Translations under genes and position numbers: made by a program | NCBI GenBank assembly: GCA_021805865.1 | Contig: JAJZDX010000021.1 | Span: forward strand, 1 to 64,000 | Origin: Pseudomonadota bacterium | GTDB taxonomy: Bacteria > Pseudomonadota > Gammaproteobacteria > Steroidobacterales > Steroidobacteraceae | Direction of reading: 5' to 3' | Length of the DNA: 64,000 nt | Notes under the pieces: generated by a model | What the model saw: the letters and a program-made list of their open reading frames with translations, nothing else | Database searches by the model: none | What the model was told of the DNA's origin: nothing | In this document: positions 8,561 to 15,645 of the stretch, one piece after another | How positions within the stretch are numbered: the first letter of the stretch is position 1 | Layout: each line of letters begins with the position of its first letter

Positions 8561-10117
8561 ATGAACGATGATGCAAACTCTCTTTCGATTCGAAGCGCCG
8601 CTGCACCCGCGGGGTCGGCACGGCCGAGCCTGCGCAAGTGCGCTTGCCAGACCATGGAAAAGCTCATTTTCGAGTATTCCGTCCACGGCCGCGGCGCCGA
8701 GGATCAGTGGCCGCGCGACCCCGGACCCGAGGCTTTGGCGGATCTGCCGCCACAGCTGCGCCGCGAGGAGGCACCGCTGCTGCCCGAAGTGAGCGAGCTG
8801 GAGGCGGTACGGCACTTCACTCGCCTCTCGCAGTTGAACTTTTCCATCGACACGCAGTTCTATCCGTTGGGCTCGTGCACGATGAAGTACAACCCCAAGG
8901 CCTGCAACCAGTACGCCATGCTTCCGGAGTTCCTCTCCCGCCATCCGCTGGCTCCCGACTCGCTCGGCCAAGGGGTGCTCGAGTGCCTCTACGAGCTGCA
9001 GGAGATGCTGAAGGAGGTTACGGGCATGCAGGCCGTGGCGCTTTCCCCCATGGCGGGCGCCCAGGGCGAATACGCCGGCGTAGCCATGATCCGCGCCTAC
9101 CATCGCTCGCGTGGCGATCTCGAGCGCAACGAGATCATCGTGCCGGAAGCGGCCCACGGCACCAATCCGGCGACCGCGACGATGTGCGGCTGCGTGGTGC
9201 GGGAGGTCCCGGTCAATGCCGAGGGGGACATGGATCTTGCCGCCCTCGAAGCGGCGGTCGGCCCGAAGACGGCCGGCATCATGCTGACCAACCCTTCCAC
9301 GCTCGGGGTGTTCGAACGGCGCATCGAGGAGGTGGCGCGGACGGTGCACGCCGCCGGTGGGCTGCTCTATTACGACGGGGCGAACCTCAATGCCATCCTC
9401 GGCAAAGTGCGGCCGGGGGATATGGGCTTCGACGTCATCCACGTCAACCTGCACAAGACATTCTCGACCCCCCACGGTGGCGGCGGACCGGGCGCGGGGC
9501 CCGTGGGGGTGAGCGAGCGCCTCGCGCCCTTCCTGCCCGTGCCTCTCGTCGGGCGCCGCGGCGAGTGCTATGCGTGGCTCACCGAGCGGGACCTGCCGCA
9601 GTCGATCGGCAGGCTCTCGGCCTTCGGCGGCAACGTGGGCGTGCTGCTGCGCGCCTACATCTACATGCGCATGCTGGGCCGCGATGGGCTCACGCGCGTG
9701 GGGGAGTACGCCACGCTCAATGCCAACTACCTGCTCGCCAGGCTCGTCCAGGCCGGATTCGAGCCCGCGTATCCGACGCGGTGGGCGAGTCACGAGTTCA
9801 TCATCACCCTCAGGGGCCAGGCCCGCGAGCTCGGAGTGAGCGCCATGGACTTCGCCAAGCGCCTGCTCGATCATGGCCAGCATGCACCGACCACCTATTT
9901 CCCGCTGCTGGTGCCGGAGTGTCTGCTGATCGAGCCGACGGAGACCGAGAGCAAGGCGGCGCTGGATGCCTTTGTGGCCGCCATGCAGCAGATCCTGGCC
10001 GAGGCTGCGCAAGAACCCGAGCACTTGCGCAGCGCTCCGCATACCATGCCGGTAAGGCGCCTGGACGATGTGCGGGCGGCCAAGCAATTGGATCTCACTT
10101 GGAAACCGGCGGCATAG
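8561..10117 (+). CDS. gcvPB: Glycine dehydrogenase (decarboxylating) subunit 2
   Basis: PLP-dependent half of the P protein, 518 residues, which decarboxylates glycine and passes aminomethyl to lipoyl-GcvH. The PLP lysine is Lys299 in [25 protein letters not shown] (about residues 103-113) is the other family landmark. Residues 1-31 before [13 protein letters not shown] look like an extension relative to most GcvPB proteins, so translation might begin at the ATG of Met32 (8654). The end overlaps the proposed dgkA start. Confidence 0.95.
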
Positions 10118-10482
10118 CCATCGATCGATACAAGCCGAGAGGCCTCACCCGGGTGCTGCGCGCCTTCGGCGCGAGCGCCCGGGGGCTCGCCGGCGCATTC
10201 CGCGAGGAGGCCGCGTTCCGCCAGGAGCTCGCCTTCGCGGCGCTCGCCATACCTCTGGCGCTCTGGTTCGGACACGACGGGGTGGAGCGTGCGCTGCTCA
10301 TCGCCCCGGTGCTGCTCATCCTGATCGTGGAGCTGATCAACAGCGCCATCGAGGCGACCGTCGATCGGATCGGGCTCGAGCGGCATGCGCTCGCCGGACT
10401 CGCCAAGGACATCGGCTCGGCGGCCGTACTGATGTCCTTCGGCCTGCTCGCCGTGGTGTGGCTGCTGGTGCTGCTGGGGTGA
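10099..10482 (+). CDS. dgkA: Diacylglycerol kinase
   Basis: Small integral inner-membrane kinase that phosphorylates diacylglycerol to phosphatidic acid; 127 residues with three membrane helices. EAAFRQE and [16 protein letters not shown] contain the conserved catalytic glutamates and match DgkA closely. No ATG or GTG precedes the conserved [10 protein letters not shown] start; the TTG at 10099, overlapping the end of gcvPB by 19 bases, gives the expected length. The next GTG (10153) would delete conserved residues. Confidence 0.88.
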
Positions 10483-10552
10483 GCGCGGCGAGGGCGGCGG
10501 TCGTGCCGCAAAAAAACGATTGCTTGTCGGAAGGTCCTGGATAGGGGGCTCG

Positions 10553-13465
10553 ATGCGATTGCTGCGACTGACTGTATGTGTGCTGACGCTCGCCGTGCTG
10601 GCGCCCTCGCCTGCGGCACTGGCCGCCAACGCCCGCGTGCCCGCGAGGCAGGCGCCGATGCGCCCGGGCTCCAGGCCGCCGCGCGAGACCTCCGTCGCCG
10701 CCCACGTGGCGAAACACGCCGCGGCGCTCGAATCCAATCCCACCTGGGCCGCCACTCTCGCGCGCATCGCCAGCAGCGTGGTCTCGATCAAGTTCAACCA
10801 AGACCGCGCCTTCGACACGGACTTCAACGAGACGGCGGAAGCGACCGGTTTCGTCGTCGACGCCAAACGCGGGATCATTCTGACGAACCGCCATGTCGTG
10901 ACACCGGGCCCGGTGACGGCCACGGCAACCTTCCTCGACCGCGAGGTGGTCAGGCTCCATCCGATCTACTACGATCCGGTGCACGACTTCGGCTTCTACC
11001 GATTCAACCCGAAGAAGCTGCGCTACATCCATCCCAGGGCGCTGCCTCTGGATCCCCAGGGGGCGAAGGTCGGCCGGGAGATCCGGGTGGTCGGCAACAA
11101 TGCCGGCGAGCAGCTCTCGATCCTCGCCGGCACGCTCGCCCGGCTGCACCGCCGCGCGCCGTACTACGGTTTCGGCAAATACAACGATTTCAACACCTTC
11201 TATCTGCAGGCGGCCTCGGGGACTTCCGGCGGCTCCTCGGGCTCGCCGGTAATCGACATCAAAGGCCAGGTGGTGGCGCTCAACGCCGGCGGCGCCACCA
11301 ATGCAGCCTCGAGCTTCTATCTGCCGCTCGGGCTGGTGAAGCGCGCCTTGCGGCTGATCGAGGAAGGCAAGCCGGTCACGCGCGGCACGCTGTACACGGT
11401 GTTTGACTACACCCCCTTCAACGAGCTCGAGCGGCTCGGGCTGCCGCGACCGGTGGAAACCGCGGTGCGCAAGGCTTATCCGCAGCGCACCGGCATGCTC
11501 GTGGTGAGGACCGTCCTGGCGGGCTCGCCGAGCGCACGGGTGCTTCAGCCGGGCGACATCCTGGTGCGTATCAACGGGCACTTCGTGACGACGTTTGGTC
11601 CTCTGGAGGGGATCCTGGACCGCTCAGTCGGGCGCCAGATCCACTTGCAGCTGGAGCGCGGCGGCCGGCTGGTGTCGGTGACGCTGCCGGTGGGCAATCT
11701 CGACGCCATTACTCCGAGCGCCTACGTCCAGTTCGGCGATGCGGTGGTCAATACACTGTCCTTTGAGATGGCACTGCAGCTGAACGTGCCTCCGCGCGGT
11801 GTGTGGGTCGCGAACCCGGGATACGTGTTCGGCGCCGCCGGTGTCCCGAGGGGCGCGGTGATCCACGCGATCGACTCCTGGCCGATCGACAACCTGCAGG
11901 ATTTCAGGCACGCGCTGGCGAGGCTCGCCGACGGCCAGTACGCCACCGTGCGTTTCACGATCGCCGCCGACCCCAACAGCAGCGAGCTCAGCTATTTCCG
12001 CATGACCCGCCGGTGGTTCCCCGCGCAGTACTGCGTGCGCGACGACAAGACCGGGATCTGGCCGTGTACGCCGCTCTCGCCGGGCCCGCCGCGGCGCCCT
12101 CATCCGGTCGTCTCCACGCGATTCCCCAAATACCGCGATCCGCTCATGACCCGGCTTGCGCCCTCGCTGGCGATGGTGACCTTCAGCATGCCGTATTCGG
12201 TCTCGGGCGTGACCGAGCATTACTATCACGGCACGGGAGTGGTGGTGGACGCCAAGCGCGGCCTGGTGGTGGTCGATCGCAACACAGTCCCGGTCTCGCT
12301 GGGAGACGTCACCGTGACGTTCGCGGGCACCGTGCAGGTGCCCGGGCGGGTGGTGTACGTCAGCCCGATCCATAACCTGGCGGTGGTCTCTTACAACCCG
12401 CGGCTGCTCGGCTCGACGCCCGTACGCTCGGCCAGGCTGAGATCCGAGCGCCTCTCACCCGGAGAGCCCATCGACGTGATCGGTCTCGGCGCCCGCAGCG
12501 ATCTGCATTTCCGCCACACCGATGTGGCCAGCATCGAGCCGCTGGAGCTGCCGCTGTCGCGCACCATGCGCTTCCGCGACACCAACATCATGAGCATCCA
12601 GCTGGTCAATCCGCCGGATGATTTCGACGGTGTGCTGACCGACGGGAGCGGCGATGTCGTCGGCTTGTGGTCGAGCTTCGCCTACGACACGGCGAACGGC
12701 GAGGGCCAGGAGCTGGAAGGGGTGCCCATCGCACCCGTAGAGGACATGCTGCAACGGATCCGCAGCGGCCAGCCTCTGCACTCGCTCGACGTCGAGCTGT
12801 CCCTGACACCGCTTGCCAGCGCACGGCTGATCGGGTTGCCTGCCTCGTGGGCGCACAAGCTTGCCGCCCAGGGGGACACCCGGCGTGAGGTTCTCACGAT
12901 CGCGCGTGCGACCGGCGGCTCGCCGGCCCAACGGCTGCTCGATCCGGGAGACCTGCTGCTCGCCATTGACGGCCGGGTGGTGACGACGTTCCGCCAGGTC
13001 GAGCGCGCGACCGCCGACAAGGCGGTGGTCAAGGTGACGATATGGCGTGGACACCAAACCCTGACTCTCACGGTGCCCACCGTAGTGCTTTCGGGCACCG
13101 CGCTGCACCGGGTCGTGGAATGGGCCGGCGCGACGCTGCAGAAGCCGTTCCATTCGATGCTGGCGCAAAGAGGCGTTCCGCCGGTCGGCGTGTACGTCGA
13201 TTATTTCGATTACGGCTCGCCGGCGGCGCGCTATGGGCTGTATCCGGGGCTGCGCATCGTCGCAGTGAACGGCACTCCGACACCAAACCTGGATGCGTTC
13301 CTCCGCGCGGTGGTCGGGCGGCCCGATCATTCCTCGGTGCGCCTGACGACCCTCACCTGGAACAACGCGCCGCAGGTGATCACGCTGAAGCTCGACAAGC
13401 ACTATTGGCCGGCATATGAGCTGGTGAGCACCGGCCACGGCTGGGTACGCCGTCCGCTTAAGTGA
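10553..13465 (+). CDS. Duplicated HtrA-type serine protease with four PDZ-like domains (Nma111-like)
   Basis: 970-residue protein with a cleavable signal peptide (residues 1-25), so probably periplasmic. Repeat 1 is a trypsin-fold protease with His114 (LTNRHVV), Asp145 (PVHDFGF) and Ser229 (GGSSGSP), then two PDZ-like units (roughly 280-370 and 385-480). Repeat 2 (from about residue 540) keeps the fold but the catalytic positions read DRNTV, IHNLAV and FDGVLTD, so it should be inactive; two more PDZ-like units follow (about 750-850 and 865-960). This order, and the motifs TNRHVV, DPVHDFGF and ASGTSGGSSGSP, recall the eukaryotic Nma111/Ynm3 family rather than DegP. It lies between dgkA and sua5 with no obvious partner. 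Substrate unknown. Confidence 0.85.
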   Translation: MRLLRLTVCVLTLAVLAPSPAALAANARVPARQAPMRPGSRPPRETSVAAHVAKHAAALESNPTWAATLARIASSVVSIKFNQDRAFDTDFNETAEATGFVVDAKRGIILTNRHVVTPGPVTATATFLDREVVRLHPIYYDPVHDFGFYRFNPKKLRYIHPRALPLDPQGAKVGREIRVVGNNAGEQLSILAGTLARLHRRAPYYGFGKYNDFNTFYLQAASGTSGGSSGSPVIDIKGQVVALNAGGATNAASSFYLPLGLVKRALRLIEEGKPVTRGTLYTVFDYTPFNELERLGLPRPVETAVRKAYPQRTGMLVVRTVLAGSPSARVLQPGDILVRINGHFVTTFGPLEGILDRSVGRQIHLQLERGGRLVSVTLPVGNLDAITPSAYVQFGDAVVNTLSFEMALQLNVPPRGVWVANPGYVFGAAGVPRGAVIHAIDSWPIDNLQDFRHALARLADGQYATVRFTIAADPNSSELSYFRMTRRWFPAQYCVRDDKTGIWPCTPLSPGPPRRPHPVVSTRFPKYRDPLMTRLAPSLAMVTFSMPYSVSGVTEHYYHGTGVVVDAKRGLVVVDRNTVPVSLGDVTVTFAGTVQVPGRVVYVSPIHNLAVVSYNPRLLGSTPVRSARLRSERLSPGEPIDVIGLGARSDLHFRHTDVASIEPLELPLSRTMRFRDTNIMSIQLVNPPDDFDGVLTDGSGDVVGLWSSFAYDTANGEGQELEGVPIAPVEDMLQRIRSGQPLHSLDVELSLTPLASARLIGLPASWAHKLAAQGDTRREVLTIARATGGSPAQRLLDPGDLLLAIDGRVVTTFRQVERATADKAVVKVTIWRGHQTLTLTVPTVVLSGTALHRVVEWAGATLQKPFHSMLAQRGVPPVGVYVDYFDYGSPAARYGLYPGLRIVAVNGTPTPNLDAFLRAVVGRPDHSSVRLTTLTWNNAPQVITLKLDKHYWPAYELVSTGHGWVRRPLK

Positions 13466-13471
13466 CGACCC

Positions 13472-14467
13472 ATGGTGAGAGTCCTCAGGGCCACTGAGGC
13501 GGAGCTCGAGTCGGCGCTGCGCAGCCTGCGAGCCGGCGAGCTGGTCGCCTTTCCGACCGAGACCGTCTACGGTCTGGGCGCCGATGCGGGCAACCCGGCC
13601 GCGGTGCGCAGGATATTCGAGGTCAAAGGCCGCCCCGCTCACCACCCGGTGATCGTCCACCTGTCCGGTATCGAGCAGCTGCACGACTGGGCCCGGGAAG
13701 TGCCGCAGTCGGCATTGCGGCTCGCGGAGCGTTTCTGGCCGGGACCTCTCACCCTGGTTCTGCCGCGCGCCGCGAAGGTCAGTGAAGTCGTAACGGGCGG
13801 ACAGGACACCGTCGCGCTGCGGGTGCCCTCCCACCCCATGGCGCAGCAGTTGCTTGCGGCCTTCCAGGGCGGCATCGCCGCACCGTCCGCGAATCGCTAT
13901 GGCAGGCTCTCTCCGACCCGGGCGGAGCACGTGCGTGAGGAGCTCGGCGCCGCGGTCAGCGTGATTCTCGATGGCGGGGAGTGCCAGATCGGACTCGAGT
14001 CCACCATTGTCGCCTTCCAGGGCCGGCAGGCGCGCCTCCTGCGTCCCGGTGCGATCACCGCGGCGCAGATCCGTCCGGTCGTCGGGGAGCTGGAAGTCGG
14101 GGCGGATGAGGCTTCGCCGCGCGTGCCTGGGAGCACAACGGTGCACTATGCGCCGGCGACGCCAGTGATCCTCGTCCCGGCCGGCCAGATCGACTCGCGG
14201 GCCGAGGCCTTCTCGGCAGGCGGCCGCCGTGTCGCGGTACTGGCGTGGCGCGCGCCGCTGGCCTCGCATTCCTCGGTGACCTGGATCAACGCCGGCCAAC
14301 GTGCGCAGCAGTACGGGCACGGCCTGTATGACCACCTGCGCGCCCTGGACAAGTCCGGGTGCAGGTGGATTCTCGTGCAGGACGTGCCGGACGCGGAGGC
14401 CTGGGCGGCCATCCGGGACCGCTTGCGGCGGGCGGCCGCGGCCGCCCGCCCCGAGGAGGCGACGTGA
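13472..14467 (+). CDS. L-threonylcarbamoyladenylate synthase, Sua5 type
   Basis: Makes threonylcarbamoyl-AMP for the t6A37 tRNA modification; 331 residues. The N-terminal YrdC domain has PTETVYGLGADA, KGRPAHHPVIVH and APSANRYG, which bind threonine and nucleotide. The C-terminal Sua5 domain (about residues 220-331), joined after the SPRVPGSTTVHYAP linker, distinguishes it from the short TsaC. The ATG is six bases after the HtrA-like gene, and the stop overlaps the next start (GTGA). Confidence 0.93.
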   Translation: MVRVLRATEAELESALRSLRAGELVAFPTETVYGLGADAGNPAAVRRIFEVKGRPAHHPVIVHLSGIEQLHDWAREVPQSALRLAERFWPGPLTLVLPRAAKVSEVVTGGQDTVALRVPSHPMAQQLLAAFQGGIAAPSANRYGRLSPTRAEHVREELGAAVSVILDGGECQIGLESTIVAFQGRQARLLRPGAITAAQIRPVVGELEVGADEASPRVPGSTTVHYAPATPVILVPAGQIDSRAEAFSAGGRRVAVLAWRAPLASHSSVTWINAGQRAQQYGHGLYDHLRALDKSGCRWILVQDVPDAEAWAAIRDRLRRAAAAARPEEAT

Positions 14468-15645
14468 GCGCACGCCGGAGCCGGTTTGTCGATCCCTTCC
14501 AGCCCGCGGAGATTCGGCGGCTGGTGCGCGAGTTCGGCTCACCGCTGCTCATTCTCGACTGCGAGCGCGTGCGCGTGCAGTTCAGGAAGCTGCGCGCGGC
14601 ACTGCCGCGGGTCGGCCTGCACTACGCGCTCAAGCCGATGCCGCACGCCGCGGTGGTGCGCACGGTGCTGGAGGAAGGCGGCTTTCTCGATCTGGCCACG
14701 ACCGGCGAGGTCCAGCTCGCGCGACGCCTCGGTGTCGATCCTGGTCGTTGCATTCATACCCATCCCATCAAACGTCCGCCAGACATCCGCAATGCGCTGG
14801 AATTCGGCGTACGCACCTTCGTGGCGGACAACGCGGACGAGGTGCGCAAATTCGAGCGGCTCGCGGGACGGGCCGAGCTGCTGATCAGGGTTTCATTCCG
14901 CAGTCCCGGGGCCGTGTGCGATCTGTCGCGCAAGTTCGGCTGCGACCCGGAGGATGCCCTGTCGCTCGCACGCCTCGCCGCCGAGCTCGGCGTCACGGTG
15001 CGGGGACTGTCGTTTCACGTGGGGTCGCAGGCGGCGGACTCGGCCAAGCATGTCGAGGCGATTCACGCCTGTGCGCGGCTCATGGCCGCCGGCCGCAGGG
15101 CGAAGCTCGGGGTTCTCGACACGCTCGATATCGGCGGGGGTTTCCCGATCGACTACGCGCAGCCGGTACAGGACATCGGCTGGTTCTGTGAGCCTCTGCG
15201 CGAGGCGCTGGATCGTCTTCCCAAGCGGGTGAGCGTGATCGCCGAGCCCGGCCGGTTCATCGTGGGACCGGCGGCCATCGGGGTTGCCTCCGTCATGGGG
15301 CGCGCACGCCGCGAAGGGCACTGGTGGTACTACCTGGATGACGGCCTGTACGGCTCGTACAGCGGCCAGCTCTACGATCACGCCCGTTATCCGGTCGAGC
15401 CGTTGAAGGACGGGGTCGAGCGGCTGCCGTCGGTGCTGGCGGGACCGACCTGCGACAGCATCGATGTGATCGCCGAGAATCTGCTGCTGCCGAAGCTCGA
15501 GACCGGCGACCTGATCGTGGGGCGCGCCATGGGCGCCTACACCTGGGCGAGCGCCTCGGAGTTCAATTTCTTTCCCAAGGCCACGGTGGTCGCGGTGAAC
15601 CTGATCCCTGGCGATACCGGGACGGTGATGCCGTTTCCGCTATGA
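14464..15645 (+). CDS. Fold-type III PLP decarboxylase, ornithine decarboxylase-like
   Basis: 393-residue alanine-racemase-fold decarboxylase. The PLP lysine is Lys57 (LHYALKPMP); other active-site motifs are FHVGSQ, IGGGFPIDY, AEPGRFIVG, GPTCDSIDVI (the Cys-Asp pair of eukaryotic-type ornithine decarboxylases) and GAYTWASASEFN. These favour ornithine (or lysine/ornithine) over meso-diaminopimelate, so the product is probably putrescine. The GTG overlaps the Sua5 stop by 4 bases and the stop overlaps the next ATG by 4 bases. Substrate specificity is inferred only. Confidence 0.85.
   Translation: MSARRSRFVDPFQPAEIRRLVREFGSPLLILDCERVRVQFRKLRAALPRVGLHYALKPMPHAAVVRTVLEEGGFLDLATTGEVQLARRLGVDPGRCIHTHPIKRPPDIRNALEFGVRTFVADNADEVRKFERLAGRAELLIRVSFRSPGAVCDLSRKFGCDPEDALSLARLAAELGVTVRGLSFHVGSQAADSAKHVEAIHACARLMAAGRRAKLGVLDTLDIGGGFPIDYAQPVQDIGWFCEPLREALDRLPKRVSVIAEPGRFIVGPAAIGVASVMGRARREGHWWYYLDDGLYGSYSGQLYDHARYPVEPLKDGVERLPSVLAGPTCDSIDVIAENLLLPKLETGDLIVGRAMGAYTWASASEFNFFPKATVVAVNLIPGDTGTVMPFPL

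What the first reader, a model, noticed from the sequence alone, without database searches (positions are those of the whole stretch)
10553..13465. Bacterial Nma111-like duplicated HtrA protease with an inactive second protease copy
The protein is built as protease-PDZ-PDZ-pseudoprotease-PDZ-PDZ. Copy 1 keeps His114, Asp145 and Ser229; copy 2 has Asn or other residues at all three sites (DRNTV, IHNLAV, FDGVLTD). This is the layout of the nuclear eukaryotic Nma111/Ynm3 family, and the active-site wording (TNRHVV, DPVHDFGF, GGSSGSP) also resembles it rather than DegP/DegS. A secreted bacterial version would bear on the origin of that family and on what the dead copy does.
Basis: partly seen in the sequence, partly recalled or inferred. 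Interest (0 to 1): 0.62.

Follow-up and report, generated by a model that had tools for sequence, protein, structure and literature searches.

The report
Secreted bacterial half-dead duplicated HtrA protease
This bacterium carries a probably exported protease made of two fused HtrA units, one apparently working and one permanently dead, the same layout as a protease known from yeast nuclei and plants; it is a conserved relative of that known family rather than something wholly new.

Summary
Window 10553-13465 (+) encodes one 970-aa protein: protease-PDZ-PDZ-dead protease-PDZ-PDZ. The halves are true repeats (profile-profile E 3.6e-46, 396 columns). His114/Asp145/Ser229 are invariant in 77 of 77 homologues; copy 2 has no His and no GxSx[GS] motif in any of the 77 and is fixed mostly as Asn577/Asn608. 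Folded alone, copy 2 gives a confident trypsin fold (pLDDT 91; Z 21.3 to DegP).

The protein belongs to the Nma111/DEG7 ("clade III") architecture family: same layout, PDZ_1 (PF12812) in both halves, GXSXS serine motif. Eukaryotic sequences came only from my memory; with them each copy groups with its like copy, but direction of transfer is unresolved (AU p 0.13). It differs by looking exported: signal-peptide-like N-terminus, and an invariant cysteine pair absent from the recalled yeast and plant proteins. It is near-universal in its order (35 of 36 good genomes sampled), linked to gcvP, dgkA and Sua5. Bacterial relatives of yeast Nma111 are already mentioned in print. Most likely role: periplasmic quality control, the dead copy serving assembly and substrate binding.

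The parts
10553..13465 (+). Nma111/DEG7-type duplicated HtrA protease gene, 970 aa plus stop
10553..10624 (+). signal-peptide-like N-terminus (residues about 1-24, MRLLR...AALA)
   Evidence: hydrophobic stretch before the protease domain in 75 of 77 homologues; cleavage site judged by eye
10742..11377 (+). active-type trypsin-like domain, copy 1 (residues about 64-275)
10892..10894 (+). catalytic His114
   Evidence: 77 of 77
10985..10987 (+). catalytic Asp145
   Evidence: 77 of 77
11237..11239 (+). catalytic Ser229 in GSSGS (GXSXS)
   Evidence: 77 of 77; GSSGSP in 72 of 77, G[SA]SG[SA]P in 77 of 77
11450..11704 (+). PDZ domain, copy 1 (residues about 300-384)
11705..11962 (+). PDZ_1-type PDZ domain, copy 1 (residues about 385-470)
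   Evidence: PF12812 at 11705-11932, 52.3 bits
12032..12067 (+). invariant cysteine pair Cys494/Cys505, probable disulfide
   Evidence: both Cys in 77 of 77; exactly two Cys in the mature part in 72 of 77
12134..12766 (+). dead trypsin-like domain, copy 2 (residues about 528-738)
12281..12283 (+). Asn577 at the place of the catalytic His
12374..12376 (+). Asn608 at the place of the catalytic Asp
12620..12634 (+). DFDGV, about the place of the catalytic Ser loop
12815..13102 (+). PDZ domain, copy 2 (residues about 755-850)
13103..13447 (+). PDZ_1-type PDZ domain, copy 2 (residues about 851-965)
   Evidence: PF12812 at 13106-13327, 32.6 bits
6557..8551 (+). gcvPA-like gene (glycine cleavage P-protein subunit), conserved neighbour; start not settled
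8561..10117 (+). gcvPB-like gene, conserved neighbour
10117..10482 (+). dgkA-like diacylglycerol kinase gene, conserved neighbour; start not settled
   Evidence: PF01219 3.5e-32
13472..14467 (+). Sua5/TsaC-like gene, conserved neighbour
14359..15645 (+). PLP-dependent decarboxylase gene (longest frame; true start probably later)

Best explanation
The gene encodes an exported HtrA-type serine endoprotease of the Nma111/DEG7 architecture family. Shown: two homologous protease-PDZ-PDZ_1 halves; an intact triad in half 1; a second half that keeps the trypsin fold in the model, lacks the catalytic residues in all 77 homologues examined and is under purifying selection; retention in nearly all sampled genomes of its order, beside gcvP, dgkA and Sua5 in its closer relatives. 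Inferred: the N-terminus sends it to the periplasm, where the invariant Cys494-Cys505 pair closes a disulfide; half 1 cleaves misfolded or C-terminally marked envelope proteins; the four PDZ domains bind substrates; the dead half acts as a built-in assembly and substrate-holding module, as reported for the degenerate domain of plant DEG7, so that a trimer of the long chain would resemble a DegP hexamer with one live and one dead trimer. It works beside, not instead of, the DegP and DegS-like proteases of the same genome.
For: Layout and domains. Internal repeat. Triad and dead residues over 77 homologues. Structure: full length pLDDT 88.8, pTM 0.86; copy 2 alone pLDDT 91.1, best match DegP 8f0a_A Z 21.3, rmsd 3.4, 198 aligned, Foldseek DegP 4a8d_A E 7.1e-12, TMq 0.71. 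Not DegP: TIGR02037 115.7 bits against a cut-off of 416.2; copy 1, copy 2 and DegP/Q/S each one side of a branch at 99, 97 and 100 SH-aLRT, no recalled rows. Selection: median dN/dS over 10 relatives about 0.135 for the copy-1 protease domain, 0.194 for the copy-2 one. Export: 75 of 77 hydrophobic N-termini; 72 of 77 with exactly two Cys; Cys pair 77 of 77. Retention: 55 of 60 relatives, 35 of 36 good-quality ones, own genome included. Own DegP and DegS-like. Dead domain of AtDeg7 in trimerisation: PMC3473262 (passages), citing Schuhmann 2011, which is not held.
Against: No tool here tests oligomer state, activity, location or substrates. Signal peptides were judged by a hydropathy rule, not a trained predictor. 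Trp65, near where HtrA trimers pack (recalled), is W in 76 of 77 rows and a gap in one, which fits classic trimerisation through copy 1 and weakens the claim that copy 2 is the main assembly part. Linkage to gcvP and Sua5 offers no obvious functional reason and was not found in 19 of 24 more distant loci with 1.5-kb flanks. PF12812 is not fully specific: it also passes its cut-off weakly in single-copy frames of about 370-580 aa.
Confidence: 0.7

Rival explanations
1. It is a DegP/DegQ-type protease that duplicated within bacteria on its own; the likeness to Nma111/DEG7 is convergent.
For: Duplication and loss of one active site is a simple path; second PDZ domains of some single-copy gammaproteobacterial proteins also pass PF12812 weakly (about 28-36 bits); no database eukaryotic sequence was compared.
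Against: Copy 1 is outside DegP/Q/S (which includes recalled rows). PF12812 matches of 37.9 bits or more all lie in frames of 932-1088 aa, except one 426-aa frame cut off near a contig end. The serine motif is GXSXS as tabulated for an Nma111 peptidase (PMC7804941, passages). With recalled yeast and Arabidopsis sequences each copy groups with its like copy, and identity in copy 1's protease domain is 57% and 55%.
Confidence: 0.05
2. The bacterial gene came from a eukaryote by horizontal transfer, and the export signal and cysteine pair were added later.
For: The tree of copy 1 does not reject the bacterial rows as one clade apart from the two recalled eukaryotic ones (p-AU 0.13); within the class the gene is patchy, 21 of 276 genomes, own included.
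Against: Bacterial rows reach down to 31% identity to the window protein, while recalled Nma111 and DEG7 stand at up to 37% and 44% from bacterial rows; the gene is near-universal in the sampled order and holds a conserved place in close relatives.
Confidence: 0.15
3. The second protease copy is a relic on its way out, without function.
For: It is less conserved than copy 1 (mean 0.63 against 0.79).
Against: dN/dS about 0.19 over 10 relatives; a confident trypsin fold; the replacing residues are themselves conserved, Asn577 69 of 77 and Asn608 75 of 77; no half-length version of this clade was seen among the strong PF12812 matches.
Confidence: 0.04

Closest known systems
Plant DEG7 (clade III Deg proteases)
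   Same: [quoted passage not shown] in the recalled Arabidopsis sequence the dead copy carries the same Asn/Asn pair
   Different: plant protein reported in stroma, cytosol, nucleus or mitochondrion (PMC4130198, passages); the bacterial one has an export-type N-terminus and an invariant Cys pair that the recalled plant sequence lacks
Yeast Nma111/Ynm3
   Same: same layout; PDZ1 Pfam domain in the fungal proteins (PMC5982838; read here as PF12812); GXSXS motif in an Aspergillus Nma111 peptidase (PMC7804941); 36.5% identity over 909 positions to the recalled yeast sequence
   Different: nuclear and tied to apoptosis through Bir1 (titles in the reference list of PMC5982838, and general knowledge); no cysteine pair, and Arg at the dead His position, in the recalled sequence
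DegP/DegQ/DegS
   Same: trypsin fold plus PDZ domains, periplasmic setting; DegP is among the closest solved folds
   Different: single copy; separate group in the tree; the same genome has its own DegP and DegS-like genes

Membership tests
Nma111/DEG7 (clade III Deg) architecture family | about 1,000 aa with protease-PDZ-PDZ-dead protease-PDZ-PDZ | tested here: met
Nma111/DEG7 (clade III Deg) architecture family | intact His/Asp/Ser in the first protease domain | tested here: met
   77 of 77
Nma111/DEG7 (clade III Deg) architecture family | degenerate second protease domain with a trypsin fold | tested here: met
Nma111/DEG7 (clade III Deg) architecture family | PDZ_1 domain (PF12812), taken to be the 'PDZ1' named for fungal HtrA in PMC5982838 | tested here: met
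   52.3 and 32.6 bits, cut-off 28; weak matches also occur in single-copy frames
Nma111/DEG7 (clade III Deg) architecture family | GXSXS serine motif (PMC7804941) | tested here: met
   G227 S228 S229 G230 S231 in the window protein; S231 in 74 of 77, A in 3
Nma111/DEG7 (clade III Deg) architecture family | copy-by-copy grouping with verified eukaryotic members | tested here: inconclusive
Nma111/DEG7 (clade III Deg) architecture family | assembly through the dead domain (reported for AtDeg7) | not testable with these tools
   no multimer prediction or assay
Yeast Nma111 in the narrow sense (nuclear, pro-apoptotic) | intracellular, nuclear location | tested here: not met
   export-type N-terminus by a hydropathy rule; so it is filed under the architecture family, not as Nma111 itself
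DegP/Do family (TIGR02037) | score over the curated cut-off and place in the DegP/DegQ clade | tested here: not met
   115.7 bits against 416.2; separate group

The most novel reading that the evidence does not exclude
The nuclear and plastid Nma111/DEG7 proteases of eukaryotes descend from this periplasmic bacterial protease, already duplicated and half-dead before it entered eukaryotes; in bacteria the chain assembles as a covalent mimic of the DegP hexamer, one live trimer stacked on one dead trimer, held by a disulfide that was lost when the protein moved into reducing compartments.
Probability: 0.3. Interest if true: 0.65.

Novelty: new variant of a known kind. Interest (0 to 1): 0.42.

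Why it matters
It places a protease family studied in yeast apoptosis and plant photosystem repair as a probably exported, conserved protein of a bacterial order with cultured members, where genetics and biochemistry are possible. A dead domain kept under purifying selection, with its own conserved Asn/Asn pseudo-site, makes the question of what inactive protease copies do directly testable. If the recalled eukaryotic sequences are right, duplication and inactivation came before the split between the bacterial and eukaryotic proteins.

Tried and rejected
A viral-contig scan found 10 pattern matches, none a relative. Plasmids gave no match at E 1e-40. The phylum search gave 5 of 299 genomes, own included, the other four of the same class; phyla beyond this one could not be sampled, except the 14 named control genomes, where PF12812 rang in 1 (Bacteroides ihuae) and passed its cut-off in 0. 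I looked for a half-length, pre-duplication version among PF12812 matches in 370 genomes of the class: matches of 37.9 bits or more are all in full-length frames, apart from one cut off near a contig end; six of the weaker single-copy ones (L149-L154) were put in the tree and fall with DegP/Q/S. Direction of transfer was tested and left open: bacterial copy 1 as one clade p-AU 0.13; the two eukaryotic rows as one clade p-AU 0.186 in the copy-1 tree, while the full-length tree joins them at 85/91, not starred. In one search copy 2 of the two eukaryotic rows fell in different parts of the copy-2 group, the yeast row on a long branch. A search of papers for the letters TNRHVV found none. Searches that could have shown a description of bacterial duplicated HtrA proteins (open-licence PMC only; listings capped at 10-30) listed none beyond the remark in PMC5982838; I did not open most of the listed papers. 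The 50 rows listed for the full-length model all lie in residues 53-510, so copy 2 was folded and searched alone. Promoter scan 0 sites (shuffles 0.4), terminator scan 2 (shuffles 1.3).

Rows dropped: A1 (22 rows) is the window protein, L004 and 20 of the 24 loci L015-L038; L018 (in-frame TAG), L034/L035 (split pieces) and L038 (partial) were left out, as were the other fetched same-genus loci. A2 (77 rows) is the rows of A1 plus 55 of the 79 stop-free named loci, picked by hand for spread; L100 had a stop. A3 is 50 of those 77. Trees used A1 rows only. The tree left out L033 and L037 in both copies (long branches); that keeps them. dN/dS used 10 near relatives.
Full report
What is there. The frame 10553-13465 on the + strand codes for one 970-residue protein. 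Pfam reads a trypsin-like domain, PDZ_6 domains and two PDZ_1 (PF12812) domains. In the own genome (4.68 Mb, 83 contigs) PF12812 matches only this gene, once in each half, at 52.3 and 32.6 bits with a cut-off of 28. Profile-profile comparison of residues 60-470 with 528-970 aligns 396 columns with probability 100 and E 3.6e-46, so the protein is a fused duplicate of a protease-PDZ-PDZ unit, not a chance likeness.

Active and dead sites. In an alignment of 77 homologues, His114, Asp145 and Ser229 are present in 77 of 77. In copy 2 the His place is Asn in 69 of 77 (Asp 4, Ser 3, Thr 1) and never His; the Asp place is Asn in 75 of 77 and Asp in 2. The exact partner of Ser229 is uncertain, as the loop aligns with a small gap, but no row has a G.S.[GS] motif in residues 672-712 and columns 693-695 hold no Ser in any row. 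The dead site is thus itself conserved. Median dN/dS against 10 close relatives is about 0.135 for the first protease domain and 0.194 for the second: both are under purifying selection.

Structure. The full-length model, built on the 77 rows, has mean pLDDT 88.8 and pTM 0.86. The 50 matches listed for it by VIA-align all lie in residues 53-510. Copy 2 (residues 526-745) folded alone, on 50 rows, has pLDDT 91.1 and pTM 0.89; the matches listed are HtrA/Deg-type or related trypsin-like proteases, first DegP 8f0a_A at Z 21.3, rmsd 3.4, 198 residues aligned, and by Foldseek DegP 4a8d_A at E 7.1e-12, TM-score by query 0.71.

Family. The protein falls below the cut-off of every NCBIfam model listed for it (TIGR02037 115.7 against 416.2 bits). 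In a tree of 22 first copies, 22 second copies and 11 DegP/DegQ/DegS-type rows (three from E. coli, two from the own genome, six others), without recalled rows, each group is one side of a branch, support 99, 97 and 100 (SH-aLRT, quick method). In a careful tree of first copies, two of them recalled, with the same 11 rows the split is 100/100. The architecture equals that of clade III Deg proteases (PMC3473262, passages read); a PDZ1 Pfam domain, which I take to be PDZ_1, is named for fungal HtrA proteins (PMC5982838, passages); and the serine motif GXSXS tabulated for an Nma111 peptidase of Aspergillus niger (PMC7804941, passages) fits the GSSGS of residues 227-231. PF12812 is not a perfect marker: in 370 genomes of the class it also passes its cut-off weakly, at 36.3 bits or less, in single-copy frames, whereas all matches of 37.9 bits or more lie in frames of 932-1088 aa, apart from one frame of 426 aa cut off near a contig end.

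Eukaryotic relatives. No eukaryotic sequence was to be had from the collections I could search. Recalled Nma111 aligns with the window protein over 909 positions at 36.5% identity, against 21.6-26.0% over 293-405 positions for 10 of the 11 DegP-type rows (the eleventh, DegS, gave no match); in the first protease domain the window protein has 57% identity to recalled Nma111 and 55% to recalled DEG7, which have 52% to each other. With these rows each copy groups with its like copy, 99 and 100, so duplication and inactivation would predate the split. Recalled DEG7 has the same Asn/Asn at the dead site; recalled Nma111 has Arg/Asn. The direction of transfer is open: holding the bacterial first copies together is not rejected (p-AU 0.13), nor is holding the two eukaryotic ones together (p-AU 0.186).

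Who has it. Of at least 482 confirmed relatives in genome contigs the best 80 were kept; their titles name Gammaproteobacteria or Proteobacteria, among them Steroidobacteraceae, Woeseiaceae and two cultured Peristeroidobacter species, and one bin titled Actinobacteria. Among 60 relatives, own genome included (37 of its genus, 23 others of its order), 55 have a match at E 1e-30 or better, 35 of 36 of the good-quality ones; in the class 21 of 276, own included; in the phylum sample 5 of 299, own included. The own genome also has a DegP over the curated cut-off and a DegS-like gene (the latter groups with E. coli DegS), so this is an extra protease, not a replacement.

Where it acts. An 11-residue window with mean hydropathy of 2.0 or more lies before the protease domain in 75 of 77 rows, and the mature part has exactly two cysteines in 72 of 77 (3, 4, 5 or 12 in the other five). 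Cys494 and Cys505 are in 77 of 77; both positions are non-Cys in the recalled yeast and plant sequences. In the model Cys494 lies in a strand at 492-495 and Cys505 at the start of one at 505-507. Export to the periplasm with a disulfide is the natural reading, though not shown. A lipobox pattern occurs in 4 of 77 N-termini, most convincingly in L027 and L036 of one other family, which may be membrane-anchored there.

Neighbours. Tblastn over the 80 named loci finds gcvPB in 69, gcvPA in 63, Sua5 in 58 and the decarboxylase in 47, and dgkA in 48; many contigs are cut short. The window order is gcvPA, gcvPB, dgkA, protease, Sua5, decarboxylase, HAD. Of the 24 unnamed loci L015-L038, with 1.5-kb flanks or less, 5 show one of these neighbours and 19 none. 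The linkage speaks for vertical descent among close relatives; it does not name a function.

Mechanism. From what is known of HtrA proteases and from the report that the dead domain of plant DEG7 takes part in trimerisation (cited in PMC3473262; the original is not held), I take half 1 as the cutting unit, the PDZ domains as substrate binders and the dead half as a built-in assembly and holding module. Against a simple scaffold reading, Trp65, near where HtrA trimers pack (recalled), is W in 76 of 77 rows and a gap in one, so copy 1 may trimerise as well. A trimer of the long chain would then resemble a DegP hexamer with one live and one dead ring.

Novelty. [quoted passage not shown] I saw no paper that describes the bacterial protein's layout or export (searches; open-licence PMC only, capped listings, most listed papers not opened). 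I rate it a new variant of a known kind: same architecture family, probably a different compartment, and a fixed cysteine pair.

Noticed in passing
window 10068-10544 and 10117-10482: The longest mechanical + strand ORF between gcvPB and the protease (10068-10544, Arg-rich) is a shadow frame; the real gene is dgkA in another frame (PF01219, 3.5e-32).
   Followed up: yes
window 12032-12067: Cys494 and Cys505 are the only cysteines of the mature protein in 72 of 77 bacterial rows and invariant in all 77, an export-linked feature not shared by the recalled eukaryotic sequences.
   Followed up: partly
L027 and L036, N-terminus: In one other gammaproteobacterial family the protease begins with a lipobox-like motif, so it may be a membrane-anchored lipoprotein there.
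   Followed up: no
L039-L118, around the protease: gcvPA-gcvPB-(dgkA)-protease-Sua5 is a conserved block in many of these genomes; why the glycine cleavage P-protein genes stay next to a probably exported protease is unexplained.
   Followed up: partly
L018: One homologue of the same order has a single in-frame TAG in the protease reading frame.
   Followed up: no
L149-L154: Single-copy DegP-like proteins in other gammaproteobacteria pass the PF12812 cut-off weakly, so that Pfam family alone does not mark Nma111-type proteins.
   Followed up: partly
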